Under the pieces are notes generated by a model that was given only the letters and a program-made list of their open reading frames with translations, was not told the DNA's origin and ran no database searches. Position numbers and translations under genes: made by a program. From the NCBI RefSeq assembly GCF_014595945.1, contig NZ_JABXWU010000002.1, positions 248,001 to 312,000 of the forward strand: a DNA stretch of 64,000 bases. Direction: 5' to 3'. Source of the DNA: Alkalibacillus aidingensis (lineage in GTDB: Bacteria > Bacillota > Bacilli > Bacillales > Alkalibacillaceae). This document shows, in pieces, positions 24,144 to 32,520 of the stretch (position 1 is the stretch's first letter; each line of letters starts with the position of its first letter).

Positions 24144-24187
24144 AAAAAAAGATGACTCCCAATCAATATCGGGATCATCTTTTTTTA
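24144..24187 (+). terminator. Intrinsic terminator
   Basis: A stem of A/T-rich arms closed by GATGACTCCC and GGGATCATC with a short loop, ending in a run of seven T. It lies 240 bp after the zinc-ribbon gene and directly abuts a MITE-like element. The 200 bp before it show no gene. The A-run on the other side would let it work in both directions. Confidence 0.7.
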
Positions 24188-24188
24188 A

Positions 24189-24375
24189 CGCTCTGTTAAA
24201 GTCCGTTGTTGTTATAGGGCTTCGCTTTCGGTAGACGCTTTCTGAAGACCTGGACGGTCAAATGTCGATGTTGGACAAAGAACGCGGCGCTTTCACCGAC
24301 CAGGAGTCACAACCTTTGCTCTCACCATACAACAACTAAGAACTATTCTTTTAATCACCAAATTTTAACAGAGCC
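24189..24375. mobile_element. Second, shorter copy of the MITE-like element
   Basis: About 187 bp with ends matching those at 8861-9124: GCTCTGTTAAAGTCCG on the left and TTTTAACAGAGCC on the right, and the same subterminal blocks (GTTGTTGTTAT and CATACAACAAC). Compared with the first copy the core is partly deleted and more diverged, and the outermost left base differs. Flanking octamers TTTTTTAA and TTTATTTA are similar but not identical, which fits a decayed target duplication. It does not encode a protein. Confidence 0.72.
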
Positions 24376-24455
24376 TTTATTTAAAATAACATTCTTGGTG
24401 CTAAAGTCTTCATCTAATTTACATGAAACGCTTAAGGCAATTTTTAAAAATATAT

Positions 24456-25661
24456 CTAGTTTATTTTTCTAGTTACAGATAATATTATAAAAACAAACAT
24501 CATTAGTATAGTGAAATAAATCCAGCCAAATGAATATCCTCCTGTTAAATCGACGACCATCCCAAAGATTGGAGGTCCCACTAAAACCCCCATTGTTCCA
24601 ACCATAATACTGAATCCACTTGATGCACCAGATTGTTCCTTCGGGACGACCTCAGTTGCAGCATTCATCCATATACCATTAAAACCAGAGATACAAAACC
24701 CTAAGATAACAACAATCATACCGACTAGCAGAAAAGGAAATCCTTCAGGTAGGACTGATAAAATGAATGCTTGACTACCAGCAAAAATAGTAATAATAAT
24801 CATAACAATTATTCGCTTTCCAGCAAACAGACGGTCGCTGATCATTCCCCAAAGAATCCGACCAGATGAACCACTAACTTCAGAAATAACAAGTAACAAA
24901 CCCGATAGAAAAATGGTATAACCAAGATGTTCAAATGCAAATAAAACAATATATGTATTTAAAATCATTTGTCCAGCACTTAGGCCCATCGCAGATATAC
25001 TTATTAATAACAGTGTACGGTGTTTCACCACGGCTAATAACCGTTTAATATACTCTTCAATAGTTACTTTTTTCTGATTAGCACTAACACTTTTCGGTTC
25101 AAAATACATCTTATATGCAATTGAACCATATATAATCAGACACATACTTGCAATTCCCACAACAGTTCTCCACCCAAACTCATTTGCTAAAGGAAGTAAA
25201 ATTAGAGCACTTAAAGCTGATCCAATCGTCACACCAGTCTGTTTTATCCCCATCGCTGTCCCTAGCTTTTCTTTAGGGAACCAATAAAGAACACCTCGAT
25301 TTGCAGCTGGATGCATCGCCCCATAACCTGCCCCACCTAAAAACAAAAACAACAACAATAATGAATAATATAATGATAATGTAGCAAATAAAAAACTCAG
25401 ACCTGTTAATAGTACGATGACTATAATCATCTTCTTAGAACCTATTCGATCAGTCATTAACCCTGAGGGAATTGAGTTTAAAGATTGTCCCACGAAAAAA
25501 GCAGCTGGAAGCATGCCAATTTGGGTTTTAGTTAAACTTAAGTCCTCTCCGATCACCACTCCTAATGGTGAGATACTCCTACCTATAAGTGCGACAAAAG
25601 CTTGTAGAATAAATAATACGATTAACATTTTCCATGGTGTGAAATTTTCCCTATATAACAT
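24456..25661 (-). CDS. MFS transporter
   Basis: A 401-residue permease with twelve hydrophobic segments and the MFS loop motif GLMTDRIGSKKM near residue 67 and again WGMISDRLFAGKR near 273. The N-terminal GVVIGEDLSLTKTQIGMLPA pattern resembles carboxylate/anion symporters. It is divergent from the GntR regulator gene, sharing a 140-bp control region with a strong palindrome, so it probably belongs to the same regulon as the CoA-transferase operon. If so it would be a second carrier for the same or a related acid, next to the SSS symporter. Substrate unproven. Confidence 0.87.
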   Translation of the reverse strand: MLYRENFTPWKMLIVLFILQAFVALIGRSISPLGVVIGEDLSLTKTQIGMLPAAFFVGQSLNSIPSGLMTDRIGSKKMIIVIVLLTGLSFLFATLSLYYSLLLLFLFLGGAGYGAMHPAANRGVLYWFPKEKLGTAMGIKQTGVTIGSALSALILLPLANEFGWRTVVGIASMCLIIYGSIAYKMYFEPKSVSANQKKVTIEEYIKRLLAVVKHRTLLLISISAMGLSAGQMILNTYIVLFAFEHLGYTIFLSGLLLVISEVSGSSGRILWGMISDRLFAGKRIIVMIIITIFAGSQAFILSVLPEGFPFLLVGMIVVILGFCISGFNGIWMNAATEVVPKEQSGASSGFSIMVGTMGVLVGPPIFGMVVDLTGGYSFGWIYFTILMMFVFIILSVTRKIN

Positions 25662-25727: not shown

Positions 25728-25769
25728 TATTTTGTAAATGTTGACAAAATACAGATAACAGTTTACTAT
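25728..25769 (+). promoter_or_regulatory. Sigma-A promoter with overlapping GntR-type operator
   Basis: A consensus -35 TTGACA (25741-25746) and -10 TACTAT (25764-25769) with a 17-bp spacer lie 33 bp before the gntR start. The palindrome TATTTTGT (25728-25735) with ACAAAATA (25744-25751), 8-bp centre, covers the -35. A FadR/GntR regulator bound there would block polymerase, so autorepression with release by the pathway substrate is the likely mode. The palindrome also lies in front of the divergent MFS gene. Confidence 0.7.
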
Positions 25770-25802
25770 CTTTTTAAAACTTACACAAAAAGGAGGGAGA
25801 TT

Positions 25803-26459
25803 ATGAGTGGGATCATAAAATCCGAACCTTTCCACATTCAAGCCTATAAAAATATTCAACGAAGGTTATTAGAGAAAGAATTTTCACCGGGTGAACAGCT
25901 TACCGAATCGTTTCTTGCAAAAAAATTAGGCATTAGTCGAGGACCGATAAGGGAAGCTATACGCATGCTACTCCACGATGGTTTACTTGTTCAAAGTGGG
26001 GTTCACGTTTTTGTTTTTGACCCGACTTTTGAAGACGTAATTGATCTCTACTCTTGTAGAGAACGGCTTGAACCATTAGGAGCTAACCTTGCTGCACAGA
26101 ACATTACGGAAGAAAATAAACAAAAGCTTAAAGAAATTATCGATAACACTGAAAGCGCTTTATCAAATAAGGAAGATAACCATAAAATCGCATCTTTAAA
26201 TACCGACTTCCATGATCTCATCACTCAAAGCTCCATGAATAGGCAACTTATACAATTCATGAACTTAATCAGAGCTAAAAACATTTACATGAGGAATGTT
26301 TTACTAGGCGATTTCACCCGTAAAGAGAAATTCATCGATGAACACCGAAGAATAGCTGATGCCATATTAGTTGGTAACAAATATGAAGCCGAGCAAGCGA
26401 TGGTTGACCATATTCAAGTAGATTTAGAAACTTGGAAAGATATATATAAACAAAAATAA
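25803..26459 (+). CDS. GntR family regulator, FCD (FadR-type) subfamily
   Basis: A 218-residue protein. The winged helix is visible (SPGEQLTESFLAKKLGISRG then PIREAIRMLLHDGLL) near residues 28-64, and the helical FCD effector domain follows, with its metal/ligand-type Asp and His residues (NTDFHDLI near 139 and DEHRRIADAI near 180). FCD domains bind organic acids. The ATG at 25803 follows a very strong AAAGGAGGG site; the reading frame upstream has no such site. It is the first gene of the operon that runs to the symporter at 32408. Confidence 0.9.
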   Translation: MSGIIKSEPFHIQAYKNIQRRLLEKEFSPGEQLTESFLAKKLGISRGPIREAIRMLLHDGLLVQSGVHVFVFDPTFEDVIDLYSCRERLEPLGANLAAQNITEENKQKLKEIIDNTESALSNKEDNHKIASLNTDFHDLITQSSMNRQLIQFMNLIRAKNIYMRNVLLGDFTRKEKFIDEHRRIADAILVGNKYEAEQAMVDHIQVDLETWKDIYKQK

Positions 26460-26476
26460 ATGTAAGGGGGATTTTC

Positions 26477-27673
26477 ATGAGTCAAACATTAGACGGTTTA
26501 AAAGTTATTGAGTTGGGTAGTTATATTGCCGGTCCCTTTGCGGCTAAAATGTTTGCCGAATTTGGAGCAGATGTAATTAAAATTGAGCCACCTGAAAAGG
26601 GTGACCCATTACGAGGATGGAGACACATTTACGATGGAAAATCATTGTGGTGGAGACTTCAATCTAGAAATAAAAAGTCTGTCACGGTCAACCTGAAATC
26701 TGAAGAGGGTCAAGAATTAGTAAGATCCTTAGTCAAAGAAGCAGATATTGTTATTGAAAATTTCAGACCTGGAACTTTAGAAAAATGGAATTTAGGATAT
26801 GATTCACTTTCCGAAATCAACCCTGGAATCATCATGGTTCGTGTATCTGGTTACGGTCAATCAGGACCTTATCGTGATAAAGCCGGTTTTGGTAGTGTAG
26901 GTGAATCTATGGGTGGAATACGGTACATAACTGGACACCCAGAGCTACCACCACCACGTGTTGGAATTAGTCTTGGTGATCAATTAGCAGCAATGTATTC
27001 AGTTATAGGTGCTATGATGGCTGTCTACCACCGAGATGTCAATAATACTGGTGAAGGCCAAGTCATCGATGTAGCACTATATGAATCTATCTTTAGTTTA
27101 ATGGAAGGTATGTTACCAGAATACGATAAGTTCGGTGTGATTCGTGAACGTTCTGGAACTTCATTGCCGGGGGTTGCCCCCTCTAACACTTATCAATGTA
27201 AAGATGGAAAATATATCGTCATCGGAGGGAATGGAGACGCTATTTTCAAAAGACTAATGAATGCTATTGGTCGAGAGGACTTAGCTGATGACCCACGTTT
27301 TGCTGATAATAAAGGTCGAGCTGCTGAGGCTGATTTTCTTGATAAAGCTATCGAAAGCTGGACAAAAACAGTTGATTTAGATACAGCTGTTACAACGTTA
27401 GATGAGGCTCATGTCCCTGCAGGACCGATTTATAATATTGAAGATATTATAAAAGACCCACAGTACCAAGCTCGTGAGATGATTCAGGAATTTGACCTTT
27501 CAGAAGACGAAAAGATTAAGATGCCTGGAATTGTACCTAAATTCAGTAAAACACCAGGAAAAACCAAATGGCTAGGCCCTGATTTAGGTGAACATACAGA
27601 AAATGTACTAAGTGACATCCTTGGTTTAGATAAACCCAAAATTGAAGAGCTAAAAGATAAAGGGATTATTTAA
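26477..27673 (+). CDS. Class III (CaiB/BaiF family) acyl-CoA transferase
   Basis: A 398-residue CoA-transferase. Diagnostic features are LDGLKVIELGSYIAGPFAAK at the N-terminus, the IENFRPGTLEKWNLGYD segment near 93, and the conserved catalytic Asp in GISLGDQLAA (Asp168), which forms the mixed-anhydride/thioester intermediates. It moves CoA from a donor such as succinyl-CoA onto a carboxylic acid. It is 17 bp after gntR with an AAGGGGG site and is followed by a lyase of the HMG-CoA lyase family. In known pathways such a pair activates and cleaves citramalate or itaconate-derived acids, so a branched dicarboxylate is the likely substrate. Confidence 0.9.
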   Translation: MSQTLDGLKVIELGSYIAGPFAAKMFAEFGADVIKIEPPEKGDPLRGWRHIYDGKSLWWRLQSRNKKSVTVNLKSEEGQELVRSLVKEADIVIENFRPGTLEKWNLGYDSLSEINPGIIMVRVSGYGQSGPYRDKAGFGSVGESMGGIRYITGHPELPPPRVGISLGDQLAAMYSVIGAMMAVYHRDVNNTGEGQVIDVALYESIFSLMEGMLPEYDKFGVIRERSGTSLPGVAPSNTYQCKDGKYIVIGGNGDAIFKRLMNAIGREDLADDPRFADNKGRAAEADFLDKAIESWTKTVDLDTAVTTLDEAHVPAGPIYNIEDIIKDPQYQAREMIQEFDLSEDEKIKMPGIVPKFSKTPGKTKWLGPDLGEHTENVLSDILGLDKPKIEELKDKGII

Positions 27674-27691
27674 GAAGGGAGAAGTTAATTT

Positions 27692-28609
27692 ATGAATCAA
27701 CAAATTTTCATTCAAGAAGTCATGCCTCGTGATGGTCTACAGAATGAAGACCAGTTTGTCCCTACATCAGAAAAAATTAAATTCATCAACCAATTAGGAG
27801 CAGCTGGCGTGGATAAAATTGAAGCAACTTCCTTTGTCTCTCCTAAGGCTATTCCTAACTTAAGGGATGCTAGTGAGGTAATGAAGGGAATTCAAAAATA
27901 CCCCAATACAACTTATGCCGCATTAGTTCCTAACCTTAAAGGGGCTGAAAGAGCTGTGGAAGCTGGAGTAGATGAAATTAATTTACTCGTTTCTTCCAGC
28001 AATACCCATAATCTTAAAAATGTAAGAAGAACTACTGATGAGACATTTGATAATTTTTCTGAGATAATTCAATTTCTTTCAAACTATAATGTTTCATTAA
28101 ACGGCTCACTAGGAACAACTTTTGGTTGTCCATTTGAAGGTGACGTTCCTTTTGAAAAAATCTATGAACTAGTTGAAAAGTATTTAAAGTTAGGTGTTAA
28201 TGGTATCACACTTGCTGATACAACAGGTATGGCCACTCCCAAACATGTAAAGGAACTTTGTAGCGAATTAACCAAACGATATCCAGAAGTCACCTTCACA
28301 TTACATTTCCACAATACGCGAGGAATGGGATTGGCAAACGTCATTTCTGGAATTCAAACAGGCATTAATCGCTTCGACGCTTCCTTAGGAGGAGTCGGAG
28401 GTTGTCCATTTGCTCCAGGTGCTACTGGCAATATTTGTACAGAAGACCTAGTTCATATGCTAAAGTTTATGGACTATGATGTTAACCCAGATCTAGATCA
28501 ATTAATCCAGATCTCACAACAGCTATCAGACACTTTAAAACGTGAATTACCGGGTCAGGTGATAAAATCCGGGAAAATAACAGATTTACATTCATCAGTT
28601 AATGCTTAG
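27692..28609 (+). CDS. HMG-CoA lyase family protein, possible citramalyl-CoA or HMG-CoA lyase
   Basis: A 305-residue DRE-TIM barrel lyase. Visible are the metal/catalytic motif MPRDGLQNE near residues 10-18, the metal-binding pair in LHFHNTRGMG near 203-212, and the cysteine loop GGVGGCPFAPGATGN near 231-245, which carries the catalytic Cys. Family members split 3-hydroxy-3-methyl acyl-CoAs to acetyl-CoA and a keto acid. HFHNTRG differs from the HCHDTYG of classical HMG-CoA lyases, so another substrate is possible; an HMGL-like R-citramalyl-CoA lyase is known in Chloroflexus. It lies 18 bp after the CoA-transferase gene in the same operon. Confidence 0.85.
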   Translation: MNQQIFIQEVMPRDGLQNEDQFVPTSEKIKFINQLGAAGVDKIEATSFVSPKAIPNLRDASEVMKGIQKYPNTTYAALVPNLKGAERAVEAGVDEINLLVSSSNTHNLKNVRRTTDETFDNFSEIIQFLSNYNVSLNGSLGTTFGCPFEGDVPFEKIYELVEKYLKLGVNGITLADTTGMATPKHVKELCSELTKRYPEVTFTLHFHNTRGMGLANVISGIQTGINRFDASLGGVGGCPFAPGATGNICTEDLVHMLKFMDYDVNPDLDQLIQISQQLSDTLKRELPGQVIKSGKITDLHSSVNA

Positions 28610-28622
28610 AAAGGAGATTATT

Positions 28623-30059
28623 ATGGGAGGAAAAACTCTCTTTGATAAAGTTTGGGAAAGTCACGTTATTGATTCATCATTAGAAAAACCTCTTTTGTTT
28701 ATCGACCTACACCTAATTCATGAAGTAACTTCGCCACAAGCATTTTCAAAACTCAAAGAACATGGAAGAAGTGTGAGAAGACCTGATTTAACCTTTGCAA
28801 CAGCCGACCACAACGTTCCAACTAAAGACAGAGACAACATCAGGGACTTACTTGCAAAAAAACAAGTTGAATTCTTAGTAGATAATTGTAAGGAACAAGG
28901 CATCACTGTTTATGATTTGGACCATGAGGACAACGGAATTGTCCACATAATCGGACCTGAATTAGGGCTAACCACTCCAGGAAAAACCATTGTATGTGGG
29001 GATAGCCATACATCAACCCATGGAGCTTTTGGTTCACTTGCTTTCGGAATTGGTTCAAGTGAAATTACACACGTTTTAGCAACTCAAACCCTACCCCAAA
29101 GCAAGCCTAGGACCATGAATATTCACCTAAATGGTACTGTGCCTGAAGGTGTGACTGCCAAAGACATCATTTTAAAAATCATAGGTGAAATTGGAACCAA
29201 TGGTGGAACAGGTTATGTTGTCGAATTTACCGGTGAAGCTGTCACTAACATGTCCATGGAAGAAAGAATGACTATCTGTAATATGATTTTAGAAGCTGGG
29301 GCTCGCTCAGGTATGATCGCCCCGGACGAAAAAACATTTGATTACCTTAAAAATAAACGATTCACACCTACAGATGAGGATTGGGAAATTGCCGTTAGAA
29401 ACTGGAAGCAACTATACACCGACCCCGATGCTACCTATGACCAGTCCATCACCATTGATATCAACGAATTAACACCACAAGTAACATGGGGCACCAACCC
29501 AGGTCAAGTTGTATCAATCAACCACACCATCCCTGACCCAGACATCCATCAAGAGACATCAAAACGAAATGCAGCAAAAACTGCACTAGAATACATGGAG
29601 TTGGAAGCGCTTACTAATATATCAAATGTAAACATCGACAAAGCCTTTATTGGCTCATGTACTAATGCACGGATTGAGGATTTAAGAAGTGCAGCCAAAG
29701 TGGTTAAAGGTTATAAAGTGAAACCAGGCATTCAAGCATTGGTTGTTCCTGGTTCCTATCATATTAAACGAAAAGCTGAAAAGGAGGGTTTAGACCAGAT
29801 ATTTAAAAAGGCTGGCTTTGAATGGCGAGACCCTGGATGTAGCATGTGTCCTGGAATGAACCCAGATATGGCAAAACCTGGTGAACGTGTAGCATCTACA
29901 TCTAATAGAAACTTCGAGGGGAGACAAGGAAAAGGAGCGCAGACTCACTTAGTCAGCCCCGCTATGGCAGCAGCTGCTGCTATTACTGGACACTTCACAA
30001 ACGTTCAAAACTGGAATTACAAAGATCGAGGTGATCAAGAGAATGCAGCCATTTCGTAA
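28623..30059 (+). CDS. leuC: Aconitase-family dehydratase large subunit, LeuC-like
   Basis: A 478-residue LeuC homologue. The iron-sulfur ligands are present: CGDSHTSTHGAFG near residue 123 and GSCTNARIEDLRSA near 344 for the first Cys, then CSMCPGMNPD near 405-414 for the other two. LeuC/LeuD isomerise isopropylmalate and, in related enzymes, hydrate citraconate or dimethylmaleate. The ATG at 28623 follows AAAGGAG. No leuA or leuB gene is present, and the operon is a GntR-controlled catabolic one with a transporter, so a role in leucine synthesis is doubtful. The gene symbol denotes homology only. Confidence 0.88.
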   Translation: MGGKTLFDKVWESHVIDSSLEKPLLFIDLHLIHEVTSPQAFSKLKEHGRSVRRPDLTFATADHNVPTKDRDNIRDLLAKKQVEFLVDNCKEQGITVYDLDHEDNGIVHIIGPELGLTTPGKTIVCGDSHTSTHGAFGSLAFGIGSSEITHVLATQTLPQSKPRTMNIHLNGTVPEGVTAKDIILKIIGEIGTNGGTGYVVEFTGEAVTNMSMEERMTICNMILEAGARSGMIAPDEKTFDYLKNKRFTPTDEDWEIAVRNWKQLYTDPDATYDQSITIDINELTPQVTWGTNPGQVVSINHTIPDPDIHQETSKRNAAKTALEYMELEALTNISNVNIDKAFIGSCTNARIEDLRSAAKVVKGYKVKPGIQALVVPGSYHIKRKAEKEGLDQIFKKAGFEWRDPGCSMCPGMNPDMAKPGERVASTSNRNFEGRQGKGAQTHLVSPAMAAAAAITGHFTNVQNWNYKDRGDQENAAIS

Positions 30060-30651
30060 ATTAGATGGAAAAGTCACACCCATCTACCAAGACGACATTG
30101 ACACAGATATCATCGTCCCTACAGAATTCATTAAGCGTATTGAAAGAACTGGGTTTGACCAATATTTAATGTACTACTGGCGTTATGATGAACACGGAAA
30201 AGAATACCGTGATTTTCCATTGAACCAGAAAGAATACAAAGGGGCTCCCATCCTACTTACTGGGGCCAATTTTGGATGTGGTTCTTCTCGTGAGAACGCT
30301 GTTTGGGCACTTTATGATTTTGGATTTAGAGCTATTCTTGCACCATCTTTTGCTGATATTTTCAAGAATAACTGTCAAAACAATGGGTTGTTACCTATTG
30401 AGTTAGAACAGGGAGTTATTGATGAACTTTACCAAAGAACTCAGGAAGAGTCACTCTTCCTTACCATTGATCTAGAAAACAATATTATATCAGATCGTAA
30501 TCAAATAACATTACCAATCCATATCGATCCAAAAACAAGACACAAGTTTTTAGAAGGATTAGATGATATTGACTTAACTCTCTCTGTCGAAAAAGAAATT
30601 ACTGATTTTGAAAATAGGCGTCCATTTTATATGGATCCTATTAAAAAATAA
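30043..30651 (+). CDS. leuD: Aconitase-family dehydratase small subunit, LeuD-like
   Basis: A 202-residue LeuD homologue: DDIDTDIIVPTEFIK near residues 17-31, the substrate-recognition loop YYWRYDEHGKE near 45-55 and GANFGCGSSRENAVWAL near 76-92. It forms the swivel domain that completes the active site of the large subunit. The ATG at 30043 follows AGGTGA and overlaps the end of the leuC-like gene by 17 bases; an upstream start at 30031 is possible. The recognition loop still looks isopropylmalate-isomerase-like, so the substrate needs direct testing. Confidence 0.88.
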   Translation: MQPFRKLDGKVTPIYQDDIDTDIIVPTEFIKRIERTGFDQYLMYYWRYDEHGKEYRDFPLNQKEYKGAPILLTGANFGCGSSRENAVWALYDFGFRAILAPSFADIFKNNCQNNGLLPIELEQGVIDELYQRTQEESLFLTIDLENNIISDRNQITLPIHIDPKTRHKFLEGLDDIDLTLSVEKEITDFENRRPFYMDPIKK

Positions 30652-30676
30652 TAATAAATAAATGGAGGGAATGCGA

Positions 30677-30919
30677 GTGTTTAAAAAAGAACCTATTAAA
30701 AATGGCAAACTTTGGATTATTTTCGGGATTCTATTTGTACTAAGTGTCCCGTGGTATTTACCGACGGGGAGCTATGACCCGATTATCTTAGGGATTCCTT
30801 ACTGGGCCTGGATAATTCTTCTAGTTTCTATTGCCTTCTCAGCAACCATTACTTATGCGATTAAAAACCTATGGGTAACAGATGAAGATTTTGAAGAGGA
30901 GGTAGAAAATAATGAGTGA
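30677..30919 (+). CDS. DUF3311 small membrane protein, partner of the SSS symporter
   Basis: An 80-residue protein with two hydrophobic segments and the motif PWYLPTGSYDPIILGIPYWA between them, ending in an acidic tail. It matches the DUF3311/YhjC type encoded directly before sodium:solute symporter genes (yhjC-yhjB in B. subtilis). A GTG at 30677, eight bases after GGAGG, is the best start; the ATG at 30662 precedes that site. The gene overlaps the symporter gene by eight bases, which implies coupled synthesis and probably a complex. Confidence 0.82.
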   Translation: MFKKEPIKNGKLWIIFGILFVLSVPWYLPTGSYDPIILGIPYWAWIILLVSIAFSATITYAIKNLWVTDEDFEEEVENNE

Positions 30920-32408
30920 AGAATTAGCGTTTGGTGGTTGGTCAGGAATTTTGATTATGGCCATATATGGCCTAATTATGTTAACCATTGGTTTTGTTAC
31001 CTATCTAAGAAACAAAAATGCAAGAGATACTAATAAAAACTACTATCTTGGTGGCCGTGGCCTTGGTGTGATGGTTTTATTTTTCACATTTTATGCTACC
31101 CAGTATAGTGGTAATACCATTATTGGTTATGCCCCACAAGGGTATCGAATCGGGTTTGAATGGTTACAGTCAATTACTTTTATGATTCTTGTCATTGTTG
31201 GTTACTTACTATTTGCTCCTAGATTGTTTAACTTAAGTAGAAAACATAATTTTATTACCCCTGCGGATTGGTTGGACTATCGCTTTAAATCAAAAGGTAT
31301 TACTATATTAGGGTCCTTCTTAATGTTATACGGTTTGGGAAACTACATCCTAGAACAATTAATTGCTGTAGGCCAAGGAGTATCAGGATTAACAGGGAAT
31401 GCCGTACCATATGAATTAGTAGTTGTATTTTTTATATTTATTATGCTTACTTATAGCTGGTTAGGAGGAATGAAGTCCGTTGCTTATACCGACACAATGC
31501 AGGGAATTGCTTTACTGTTTGGTGTATTTGTCCTACTAATTGGGTCTGTCCTTTACTTTGGTGGTCTTCCATCATCAACTGACTATATGATTGCCTTCGA
31601 TTCAGATAAAATTGGCGTACCATCTACAGATGGATTAATCGGTTGGTTTAGCATGTTAACTTTAGTATGTATAGGTGCAGCTATCTATCCACATGCCATT
31701 CAAAGGGTGTTTTCTGCTAAAAATGAACAAACTTTAAAGAACTCCCTAATTGGTATGTCTTGGATGCCTTTTGTCACGACAGGTGTCGTATTACTAATAG
31801 GAATTATTGGGATTAATGCTTTTCCAGGATTAGACACGATGGAATCTGAACAGCTGGTTGGAATGATGGCTAATGTTGTTGCTTCAGAAAATGCCTTATT
31901 CTATTGGGCAATGATTCTACTATTCGGTGGTATTATTGCAGCCATTATCTCAACAGCCGACTCAGCACTGCTAACCTTCTCATCCATAACGTCTAGAGAT
32001 ATCTATGGTCGATACATTAATAAAGATGCAGAAGAGAAAAAACAAATCAAGGTTGGTAAGATCACAGGAGTTGTCGCAGTATTCCTTTTACTGTTAATTG
32101 CATGGAATCCACCGGGTACACTATTTGAAATATTTGTATTAAAATTTGAAGTGTTGATCCAAGTGGCTCCTGCTTTTATCCTTGGCTTATATTGGAAAGG
32201 CTTACACACACCATCAGTATTTACTGGTATGTTACTAGGAACTATCACTGCAGCAACTATGGTATTTACGGACTTTGTACCTTTAGGAATTGCAGCTGGA
32301 TTATGGGGTCTTCTTATAAATACATTAATTTGTGTTTTCGGCAGTATTATTTTCAAAAAATCCGTCAAATACGAGGGTGAAGAAACAAAAGAAGCAGTTG
32401 GTTTTTAA
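30912..32408 (+). CDS. Sodium:solute symporter (SSS family)
   Basis: A 498-residue membrane protein with about thirteen hydrophobic segments. SSS features include YYLGGRGLGVMVLFFTFYAT near residues 44-63, the GGMKSVAYTDTMQGIAL segment near 184-200 typical of this family, and the sodium-site region AAIISTADSALLTFSS near 344-359. Close relatives (PanF/YhjB type) carry pantothenate or monocarboxylates. As the last gene of the GntR operon it probably imports the acid that the CoA-transferase, lyase and hydratase degrade. A strong terminator follows. Confidence 0.92.
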   Translation: MSEELAFGGWSGILIMAIYGLIMLTIGFVTYLRNKNARDTNKNYYLGGRGLGVMVLFFTFYATQYSGNTIIGYAPQGYRIGFEWLQSITFMILVIVGYLLFAPRLFNLSRKHNFITPADWLDYRFKSKGITILGSFLMLYGLGNYILEQLIAVGQGVSGLTGNAVPYELVVVFFIFIMLTYSWLGGMKSVAYTDTMQGIALLFGVFVLLIGSVLYFGGLPSSTDYMIAFDSDKIGVPSTDGLIGWFSMLTLVCIGAAIYPHAIQRVFSAKNEQTLKNSLIGMSWMPFVTTGVVLLIGIIGINAFPGLDTMESEQLVGMMANVVASENALFYWAMILLFGGIIAAIISTADSALLTFSSITSRDIYGRYINKDAEEKKQIKVGKITGVVAVFLLLLIAWNPPGTLFEIFVLKFEVLIQVAPAFILGLYWKGLHTPSVFTGMLLGTITAATMVFTDFVPLGIAAGLWGLLINTLICVFGSIIFKKSVKYEGEETKEAVGF

Positions 32409-32467
32409 TCAGATTGCCTAATAAATAATTTTAATTAAAGCAACTACGATAAATTAATTTTTATATT

Positions 32468-32520
32468 GGTTGGTATGGATTCGGTATTTAGGCCGAACTC
32501 ATACCAGCCGATTTTTATTT
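32468..32520 (+). terminator. Intrinsic terminator after the symporter gene
   Basis: The arms GGTTGGTATG and CATACCAGCC close an extended hairpin that also pairs TTCGG with CCGAA, followed by a U-rich tail. It ends the GntR operon. The remaining 350 bp up to the acyltransferase gene are AT-rich and show no gene; some stretches could hold a promoter but none is convincing. Confidence 0.85.

What the first reader, a model, noticed from the sequence alone, without database searches (positions are those of the whole stretch)
25728..32408. GntR-controlled operon that could hydrate, CoA-activate and cleave a branched dicarboxylate
Seen: gntR, class III CoA-transferase, HMG-CoA-lyase-family lyase, LeuC/LeuD-type subunits, DUF3311 and an SSS symporter are co-directional with tiny gaps or overlaps. 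A divergent MFS gene shares the promoter region. No leuA or leuB accompanies leuCD. Known: LeuCD-type enzymes can hydrate citraconate; CaiB-family enzymes make citramalyl-CoA; an HMGL-like R-citramalyl-CoA lyase exists in Chloroflexus. Inferred: uptake, hydration to citramalate, CoA transfer, then cleavage to acetyl-CoA and pyruvate. I know of no described Bacillaceae operon with exactly this set.
Basis: partly seen in the sequence, partly recalled or inferred. Interest (0 to 1): 0.72.

Follow-up and report, generated by a model that had tools for sequence, protein, structure and literature searches.

The report
Operon likely degrading citraconate and (R)-citramalate
A bacterium, probably of the salt-loving genus Alkalibacillus, carries a compact gene set that most likely takes up a small branched acid (citraconate or its hydrated form) and splits it into two everyday building blocks; the usual labels for two of these genes, leucine synthesis and ketone-body lyase, do not fit the genome.

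Summary
The operon is real: gntR, class III CoA-transferase, HMG-CoA-lyase-type lyase, leuC, leuD, small membrane protein, Na+/solute symporter, plus a divergent MFS gene. leuCD is not for leucine: the genome (98.95% complete) shows no other leuC, leuA, leuB or ilvC. A second HMGL sits in a leucine-degradation-type cluster, so the operon lyase is probably not the ordinary one. The transferase directly precedes the lyase in 74 of the 80 relatives kept. In 12 of 80 an aconitase-superfamily gene lies within 4 kb: LeuCD (recruited at least twice by the tree), a single-chain aconitase-like type or a HacA type. The closest solved structure (55% identical) is titled as a complex with CoA and 3-methylmalate, a C5 branched hydroxydiacid. 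By CIP rules, LeuCD-type hydration fits (R)-citramalate, and HMGL-type lyases, which take (S)-HMG-CoA, fit (R)-citramalyl-CoA. Best reading: citraconate/(R)-citramalate to acetyl-CoA plus pyruvate, the (R)-counterpart of the itaconate/(S)-citramalate route. Substrate and activities are untested. New variant of a known kind; the open-licence paper searches, with capped listings, showed no description of it.

The parts
24456..25661 (-). Divergent MFS transporter, possible second carrier for the substrate or a related acid
   Evidence: Pfam MFS_1; also divergent from gntR in L010, L011 and L014; downstream of the symporter in 7 of 7 Halobacillus/Thalassobacillus loci; not seen in L015, L019, L022
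25728..25769 (+). Promoter/operator block: -35 TTGACA 25741-25746, 17-nt spacer, -10 TACTAT ending 25769; inverted repeat TATTTTGT (25728-25735) / ACAAAATA (25744-25751) overlapping the -35
   Evidence: TGTTGACAA and flanking bases conserved in window, L010, L011, L014; the inverted repeat itself is intact only in window and L010; promoter-like matches in the region are not above chance
25803..26459 (+). GntR/FCD-family regulator
   Evidence: Pfam FCD 2.8e-24 and GntR 2.4e-13
26477..27673 (+). Class III (CaiB/BaiF) CoA-transferase, proposed succinyl-CoA:(R)-citramalate CoA-transferase; Asp168 aligns with Asp in the four PDB relatives shown
   Evidence: Pfam CoA_transf_3 8.5e-128; alignments; all seven NCBIfam matches below cut-off
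27692..28609 (+). HMGL-like lyase, proposed (R)-citramalyl-CoA lyase; R13, D14, E44, H205, H207, C238, N247 invariant in 18 aligned relatives
   Evidence: Pfam HMGL-like; alignment A1; 55% identical to 6nds, title 'in complex with coenzyme A and 3-methylmalate'
28623..30059 (+). LeuC-type large subunit, proposed citraconate hydratase; C346, C406, C409 present
   Evidence: NF004016 757.9 bits, over cut-off; not leucine synthesis; residues
30043..30651 (+). LeuD-type small subunit; SSRENAVW where the LeuD compared have SSREHAPW
   Evidence: NF002458 248.8 bits, over cut-off; comparison
30662..30919 (+). Small membrane protein (two hydrophobic stretches, by eye), directly before the symporter in 13 of 13 loci that have the symporter; DUF3311 label weak
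30912..32408 (+). Na+/solute symporter (SSS), proposed uptake system
   Evidence: Pfam SSF 3.3e-47
32465..32512 (+). Probable intrinsic terminator: 20-pair stem followed by a U-rich tail
   Evidence: -28.6 kcal/mol, z -6.41, 0 of 200 shuffles as stable; the consensus terminator scan did not list it

Best explanation
An inducible catabolic operon for citraconate and/or (R)-citramalate (with 3-methylmalate perhaps reachable through the same hydratase). The SSS symporter, and perhaps the MFS carrier, takes up the diacid; LeuCD, a 4Fe-4S hydro-lyase freed from leucine synthesis, hydrates citraconate to (R)-citramalate; the class III CoA-transferase makes (R)-citramalyl-CoA, probably from succinyl-CoA; the HMGL-like lyase cleaves it to acetyl-CoA and pyruvate; GntR controls the promoter. 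Shown: gene set, lack of leucine synthesis genes, conserved transferase-lyase pairing, repeated association with aconitase-type genes. Inferred: substrate, each activity, enantiomer, CoA donor, regulation.
For: (1) No other LeuC-level hit, leuA, leuB or ilvC in the genome (the three family searches rang in 14 of 14 control genomes, the leuA model over its cut-off in 9 of 14). (2) A separate HMGL (44% identical) lies among ORFs that read by eye as acyl-CoA dehydrogenase, CoA ligase, biotin carboxylase, enoyl-CoA hydratase and carboxyltransferase, i.e. leucine degradation. (3) CoA-transferase directly upstream of the lyase in 74 of 80 relatives. (4) Aconitase-superfamily gene within 4 kb in 12 of 80: separate LeuC/LeuD 7, fused LeuC-LeuD 1, single-chain aconitase-like 3, HacA-type 1. 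(5) LeuC tree: Bacillota and proteobacterial operon LeuCs sit in different, well-supported parts (3 changes). (6) 6nds, 55% identical, TM 0.94, title names CoA and 3-methylmalate. (7) By CIP rules (S)-HMG-CoA corresponds in space to (R)-citramalyl-CoA, and (2S)-2-isopropylmalate to (R)-citramalate; in agreement, Rv2498c (CitE family) takes (R)-HMG-CoA and (S)-citramalyl-CoA while PA2011 is (S)-HMG-CoA-specific (PMC6689899, passages; that PA2011 is HMGL-type is recalled). (8) IPM dehydratase converts citramalate to citraconate (PMC5882075, passages). (9) Transporters near the pair differ by lineage but are repeatedly carboxylate types: TRAP, TctC, MatC/CitMHS, SDF (profiles on representatives). 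(10) A CitE-type lyase lies near the pair in 5 loci and an MmgE/PrpD gene in 4 (one of each profiled).
Against: No assay, expression or growth data. 68 of 80 relatives show no aconitase-type gene within 4 kb, so hydration is not an obligate part. Ten Bacillaceae relatives (L012, L013, L015-L022) have transferase, lyase and symporter without leuCD. Six of 80 lack a transferase directly upstream; of these L075 showed no transferase hit at all. The 6nds ligand is 3-methylmalate, not citramalate, and may be fortuitous. The lyase passes the HMG-CoA-lyase subfamily cut-off and LeuCD the leuC/leuD cut-offs. The single-chain hydratase of L053 passes an 'aconitate hydratase' cut-off. LeuD residue changes of the Bacillota are not shared by the proteobacterial operon LeuDs. 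The Chloroflexus enzymes could not be compared in sequence.
Confidence: 0.6

Rival explanations
1. 3-Methylmalate is the true substrate of the transferase-lyase pair: 3-methylmalyl-CoA is cleaved to propionyl-CoA and glyoxylate, and LeuCD makes 3-methylmalate from citraconate.
For: 6nds, the nearest solved lyase, is titled as a complex with CoA and 3-methylmalate; LeuCD-type enzymes form 3-methylmalate from citraconate (recalled, citramalate route to isoleucine).
Against: HMG-CoA lyase cleaves a tertiary alcohol and releases a ketone (established chemistry); 3-methylmalyl-CoA is a secondary alcohol, handled elsewhere by CitE-like lyases (named so in PMC8307300).
Confidence: 0.1
2. Maleate/(R)-malate catabolism: LeuCD hydrates maleate to (R)-malate, the transferase makes (R)-malyl-CoA and the lyase gives acetyl-CoA and glyoxylate.
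For: An M. jannaschii enzyme encoded by leuC shows maleate hydratase activity, and EC 2.8.3.20 is named for (R)-malate as well as (R)-citramalate (PMC8307300, passages).
Against: Same tertiary-alcohol argument; a methyl-branched C5 ligand in the nearest structure.
Confidence: 0.08
3. 3-Hydroxy-3-methylglutarate (HMG) catabolism: transferase makes HMG-CoA, lyase gives acetyl-CoA and acetoacetate.
For: The lyase passes the HMG-CoA-lyase subfamily cut-off (350.6 against 246); succinate-HMG CoA-transferase (9br7) is a relative of the transferase.
Against: Leaves LeuCD unexplained; the genome has a second HMGL in a leucine-degradation-type cluster; no thiolase or type I CoA-transferase motif in the ORFs of the 80 relatives (motifs recalled, no positive control run); the lyase family has HxHNTRG in 80 of 80 and DTTGM in 78 of 80, where the own paralogue and 1ydo have HFHDTRG and DTIG.
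Confidence: 0.1
4. Isopropylmalate salvage: LeuCD turns 3-isopropylmalate into 2-isopropylmalate; the transferase and lyase reverse the LeuA reaction to acetyl-CoA and 2-oxoisovalerate, a valine precursor for a strain without ilvC and leuA.
For: LeuCD's usual substrate class; the lyase model matches LeuA-type structures in fold; leuA, leuB and ilvC not found.
Against: I saw no support for a class III transferase accepting C7 acids; nearest ligand is C5; LeuD differs from the compared LeuDs at F43M, H85N and P87V.
Confidence: 0.06
5. leuCD is an ordinary leucine-synthesis pair that happens to sit in a catabolic operon.
For: It is the only leuC found in the genome and passes the leuC/leuD cut-offs.
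Against: leuA, leuB and ilvC not found; its clade is separate from the LeuC of the ilv-leu-type operons of the same family.
Confidence: 0.02

Closest known systems
Chloroflexus aurantiacus succinyl-CoA:(R)-citramalate CoA-transferase (EC 2.8.3.20) and (R)-citramalyl-CoA lyase (EC 4.1.3.46)
   Same: A class III CoA-transferase co-transcribed with an HMGL-like lyase, handling (R)-citramalate (organism, families and arrangement recalled from Friedmann et al. 2006/2007, not read; the EC names seen in passages of PMC8307300)
   Different: I recall no LeuCD, regulator or symporter with it; sequences not available here for comparison
Itaconate/(S)-citramalate degradation cluster of Pseudomonas (ict-ich-ccl and extensions)
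   Same: CoA activation, then cleavage of citramalyl-CoA to acetyl-CoA and pyruvate
   Different: (S)-enantiomer, CitE-type lyase; P. putida carrying PA0878-0883 did not metabolise (R)-citramalate or citraconate (PMC9875883, passages)
LeuCD isopropylmalate dehydratase / citraconase (EC 4.2.1.35, number recalled)
   Same: Same protein family as LeuCD; IPM dehydratase converts citramalate to citraconate (PMC5882075, passages)
   Different: Here without leuA/leuB, and with its own residue changes
HMG-CoA lyase of leucine degradation
   Same: Fold and catalytic residues
   Different: 44% identity to the own paralogue; DTTGM and HNTRG signatures; different operon

Membership tests
HMG-CoA lyase of leucine degradation | HMGL-like TIM barrel with the Arg-Asp, Glu, HxH, Cys, Asn residues (roles recalled) | tested here: met
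HMG-CoA lyase of leucine degradation | Located with carboxylase and acyl-CoA dehydrogenase genes of leucine degradation | tested here: not met
   That context belongs to the paralogue at G000:C1:421368 (genes named by eye)
(R)-citramalyl-CoA lyase / succinyl-CoA:(R)-citramalate CoA-transferase pair | Class III CoA-transferase adjacent to HMGL-like lyase | tested here: met
   Window and 74 of 80 relatives
(R)-citramalyl-CoA lyase / succinyl-CoA:(R)-citramalate CoA-transferase pair | Sequence kinship with the Chloroflexus enzymes | not tested
(R)-citramalyl-CoA lyase / succinyl-CoA:(R)-citramalate CoA-transferase pair | Activity on (R)-citramalate and (R)-citramalyl-CoA | not testable with these tools
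   Needs enzymology
Leucine-biosynthetic isopropylmalate isomerase | Works with LeuA and LeuB in the same cell | tested here: not met
   ilvC also not found
Leucine-biosynthetic isopropylmalate isomerase | Sequence family and three cluster cysteines | tested here: met
Citraconate hydratase (EC 4.2.1.35) | Hydrates citraconate to (R)-citramalate | not testable with these tools
   Family-level plausibility only
Itaconate degradation (ict-ich-ccl) | CitE-type lyase in the cluster | tested here: not met
   The window's lyase is HMGL-type and its hydratase LeuCD-type

The most novel reading that the evidence does not exclude
The operon salvages alkylmalates in general, including 2- and 3-isopropylmalate, by running leucine-pathway chemistry backwards: LeuCD plus a CoA-transferase and lyase that reverse LeuA, giving acetyl-CoA and a 2-oxo acid (pyruvate or 2-oxoisovalerate) and so feeding valine or leucine formation in a branched-chain amino acid auxotroph.
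Probability: 0.06. Interest if true: 0.75.

Novelty: new variant of a known kind. Interest (0 to 1): 0.52.

Why it matters
Bacterial use of (S)-citramalate and itaconate is genetically defined, but the Pseudomonas cluster did not let P. putida metabolise (R)-citramalate or citraconate (PMC9875883, passages). This operon is a concrete, testable candidate for that missing (R)-branch and for genes of a citraconate hydratase. It would also correct a misleading annotation: on Cupriavidus necator N-1 plasmid pBB2 the leuC and leuD that follow such a transferase-lyase pair are tagged with leucine biosynthesis and the lyase is named hydroxymethylglutaryl-CoA lyase. The repeated association of different aconitase-type genes with one transferase-lyase pair looks like a natural case of convergent pathway assembly. 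Immunoregulatory effects are reported for citraconate and mesaconate (PMC9875883), so knowing which bacteria degrade them is useful.

Tried and rejected
Leucine synthesis: rejected, leuA/leuB/ilvC not found. Ordinary HMG-CoA lyase of leucine degradation: set aside on context, as a paralogue has that context. Curated names for the transferase (succinate-glutarate, formyl-CoA, mesaconate and others): all seven below cut-off. From their sizes I expected two gene pairs downstream of the lyase (L023 416+207 aa, L049 439+202 aa) to be another LeuCD type; they match a PVC-type heme protein with a diheme-shuttle-like protein, and a sigma-54 regulator with a FadR/TetR-type regulator, and were dropped. 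Plasmids: of 38 records with a relative (25 listed) I opened 3; H3 has leuCD after the pair, H16 the pair without leuCD, H8 the lyase without an adjacent transferase. Literature: open-licence PMC only; 25 of 39 listed; 14 of 14; 5 of 5; 24 of 25; 25 of 44; 20 of 69; 13 of 13; 0 papers for leuC + CaiB + hydroxymethylglutaryl-CoA lyase + gene cluster; 15 of 20. No listed title or abstract start described this gene set; papers beyond the listings were not seen. Papers opened were read as passages only.

Limits of my own counts; the thiolase/CoA-transferase motifs were recalled PROSITE patterns, without a positive control; two of the 80 loci (L043, L062) lost their gene lists through my overlap filter, so neighbour counts rest on 78; only 8 of the 12 Bacillota 'biosynthetic' LeuCD were checked for ilv-leu context (by size and order); the other 4 and the 7 proteobacterial ones were taken as biosynthetic unchecked; rows outside these groups were left out. 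L135 (no label) falls beside operon LeuCs and its context was not examined; of the 12 aconitase-positive loci L053, L074, L076 and L083 were not in this tree (L074 and L083 not submitted, L053 and L076 excluded). L074 and L083 are called single-chain aconitase-like from BLAST to LeuC and similar length only. Genes of the paralogue's cluster (L107) and of the ilv-leu operons were named by eye or size, not by profile.
Full report
WHAT IS THERE. Between 25803 and 32408 lie seven co-directional genes: GntR/FCD regulator, class III CoA-transferase, HMGL-like lyase, LeuC, LeuD, a small membrane protein and an SSS symporter; an MFS gene (24456-25661) is divergent. Overlaps (LeuC/LeuD 17 nt, small protein/SSS 8 nt) argue for one transcript. 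A strong hairpin with a U-rich tail follows at 32465-32512 (z -6.41), although the consensus terminator scan did not list it and its hits were at chance level (5 against 5.2). Upstream, a -35/-10 pair (25741-25769) lies in a block conserved in Piscibacillus halophilus (L010), Virgibacillus oceani (L011) and Alkalibacillus salilacus (L014); an inverted repeat over the -35 is intact in the window and L010 only. Promoter-like matches in the region as a whole are not above chance (27 against 25.3, sd 4.2), so the conservation carries the argument. The small protein matches DUF3311 only weakly.

WHERE IT IS. The genome G000 has 2.84 Mb and is 98.95% complete. G005, of the same genus, carries the operon on a contig of 411,639 bases, the length of the Alkalibacillus salilacus contig of L014, so the window most likely comes from an Alkalibacillus (inference). 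Of the 6 genomes of this genus searched, 2 have the LeuC and the lyase at the thresholds used.

NOT LEUCINE SYNTHESIS. The only other hits to this LeuC in the genome are two weakly similar proteins of 680 and 904 aa, of aconitase size. The leuA model finds only the two HMGL-type lyases and a 1172-aa protein, all below cut-off. The LeuB/isocitrate dehydrogenase family has one member of 427 aa, taken as isocitrate dehydrogenase: its neighbours on the same strand have 403 and 320 aa, sizes that fit citrate synthase and malate dehydrogenase (by size only). ilvC was not found. These three family searches rang in 14 of 14 control genomes (the leuA model over its cut-off in 9 of 14). In the same family 11 of 22 genomes have a LeuC at E <= 1e-150: 3 lie in this operon (72-100% identical) and 8 (59-62%) lie among ORFs of the size and order of ilvB, ilvN, ilvC, leuA, leuB and leuD (named by size, order and the ~22% similarity of the leuA-sized ORF to the lyase).

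PROBABLY NOT THE ORDINARY HMG-CoA LYASE. A 44%-identical paralogue sits among ORFs that read as acyl-CoA dehydrogenase, CoA ligase, biotin carboxylase, enoyl-CoA hydratase and carboxyltransferase (by eye), i.e. leucine degradation. The operon lyase keeps R13, D14, E44, H205, H207, C238 and N247 but belongs to a family with HxHNTRG in 80 of 80 and DTTGM in 78 of 80 fetched relatives (the other two DTTGV), where the paralogue, B. subtilis 1ydo and human 2cw6 have HxHDT and DTIG. Against this, it does pass NCBI's HMG-CoA-lyase subfamily cut-off. A model (pLDDT 88.4) matches 6nds best (TM 0.94, 55% identity), titled 'Structure of an HMG-CoA lyase ... in complex with coenzyme A and 3-methylmalate'; 6nds shares DTTGM and HFHNTRG. 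3-Methylmalate is an isomer of citramalate.

THE CONSERVED CORE AND ITS ADD-ONS. Of these 80, 74 have a class III transferase ending near the start of the lyase on the same strand; the six others are L035, L049, L060, L075, L076 and L079, of which L060 has it four genes upstream and L076 directly downstream. An aconitase-superfamily large subunit lies within 4 kb in 12 of 80: separate LeuC/LeuD in L010, L011, L014, L043, L045, L060, L082; a LeuC-LeuD fusion in L051; single-chain aconitase-like proteins in L053, L074, L083; a HacA-type protein in L076 (of these twelve only L051, L053 and L076 were scanned against profiles). The label needs 8 changes on the lyase tree, at least 6 forced by well-supported branches. 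On the LeuC tree of 34 rows the operon LeuCs need 3 changes: the four Bacillota ones form a clade (100/99) beside the 12 other Bacillota LeuCs, which include a second LeuC of V. oceani itself; the five proteobacterial ones are nested among proteobacterial LeuCs. Hydratases were therefore recruited more than once. Ten Bacillaceae relatives (L012, L013, L015-L022) have transferase, lyase and symporter without leuCD, as expected if the core acts on the hydroxy acid and leuCD widens the range to the unsaturated acid, but this also shows that leuCD is optional.

NEIGHBOURS POINT TO DIACIDS. TRAP-type genes lie near the pair in 32 of 78 loci, TctC in 9, SSS in 13 (by similarity clustering, with profiles run on representatives only); P. 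ceruminis (L060) has a MatC/CitMHS-type carrier between transferase and leuC. A CitE-type lyase cluster is near in 5 loci and an MmgE/PrpD cluster in 4; in L065 these are a RipC/Ccl-like lyase (159.8 bits, below the cut-off of 375) beside a further class III transferase, and an MmgE/PrpD protein. Such families occur in the itaconate/methylsuccinate cluster (PMC12290011, abstract start and passages).

STEREOCHEMISTRY. By CIP rules, replacing the CH2-COOH arm of HMG-CoA by COOH swaps priorities 2 and 3, so (S)-HMG-CoA and (R)-citramalyl-CoA have the same arrangement in space. This agrees with Rv2498c, a CitE-family enzyme that takes (R)-HMG-CoA and (S)-citramalyl-CoA, while the lyase PA2011 is (S)-HMG-CoA-specific (PMC6689899, passages). 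In the same way (2S)-2-isopropylmalate corresponds to (R)-citramalate. A LeuCD-type hydratase and an HMGL-type lyase are thus matched for the (R)-series, as CitE-type lyases are for the (S)-series. Isopropylmalate dehydratase is reported to convert citramalate to citraconate (PMC5882075, passages).

CATALYTIC RESIDUES AND DIVERGENCE. The transferase Asp168 aligns with Asp in the four solved relatives shown (its catalytic role is recalled). LeuC keeps C346, C406 and C409. The four Bacillota operon LeuCD agree among themselves and differ from the residue found in at least 90% of 19 other LeuCD at LeuD Q28E, F43M, H85N, P87V and at 12 LeuC sites, among them E149T, M295Q and L410P; the five proteobacterial operon LeuCD share none of the four LeuD changes, so these mark the lineage and not the function.

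VERDICT. Best reading (0.6): a citraconate/(R)-citramalate catabolic operon yielding acetyl-CoA and pyruvate. The chemistry of each step is known for other enzymes; the combination, its spread and the repeated hydratase recruitment are what is new. The known Pseudomonas cluster did not let P. putida metabolise (R)-citramalate or citraconate (PMC9875883, passages), so this would fill a gap. I saw no description of it in the listings, which cover open-licence PMC papers only and were partly capped; the older work on citraconase and the Chloroflexus enzymes is recalled, not read.

Noticed in passing
window 24187-24377: A ~190-bp non-coding element with 14-nt terminal inverted repeats (93% complementary); 55 matching pieces in the own genome (40 of 54 candidates scored), about six of them near full length including this one: MITE-like.
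   Followed up: partly
L146 5739-11090 (Cupriavidus necator N-1 plasmid pBB2): Transferase, lyase, leuC, leuD and a TTT substrate-binding protein in a row on a plasmid; leuC/leuD tagged as leucine biosynthesis.
   Followed up: no
L065 6648-13696 and similar Stutzerimonas/Pseudomonas loci: The transferase-lyase pair lies near a second class III transferase with a CitE-type lyase and an MmgE/PrpD gene: possibly (R)- and (S)-branch modules side by side.
   Followed up: partly
G000 (own genome): leuA, leuB and ilvC not found, yet a leucine-degradation-type cluster is present: probably a branched-chain amino acid auxotroph that can degrade leucine.
   Followed up: partly
L051 9005-11089: A natural LeuC-LeuD fusion of 695 aa in Cupriavidus basilensis OR16, directly after the transferase-lyase pair.
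   Followed up: no
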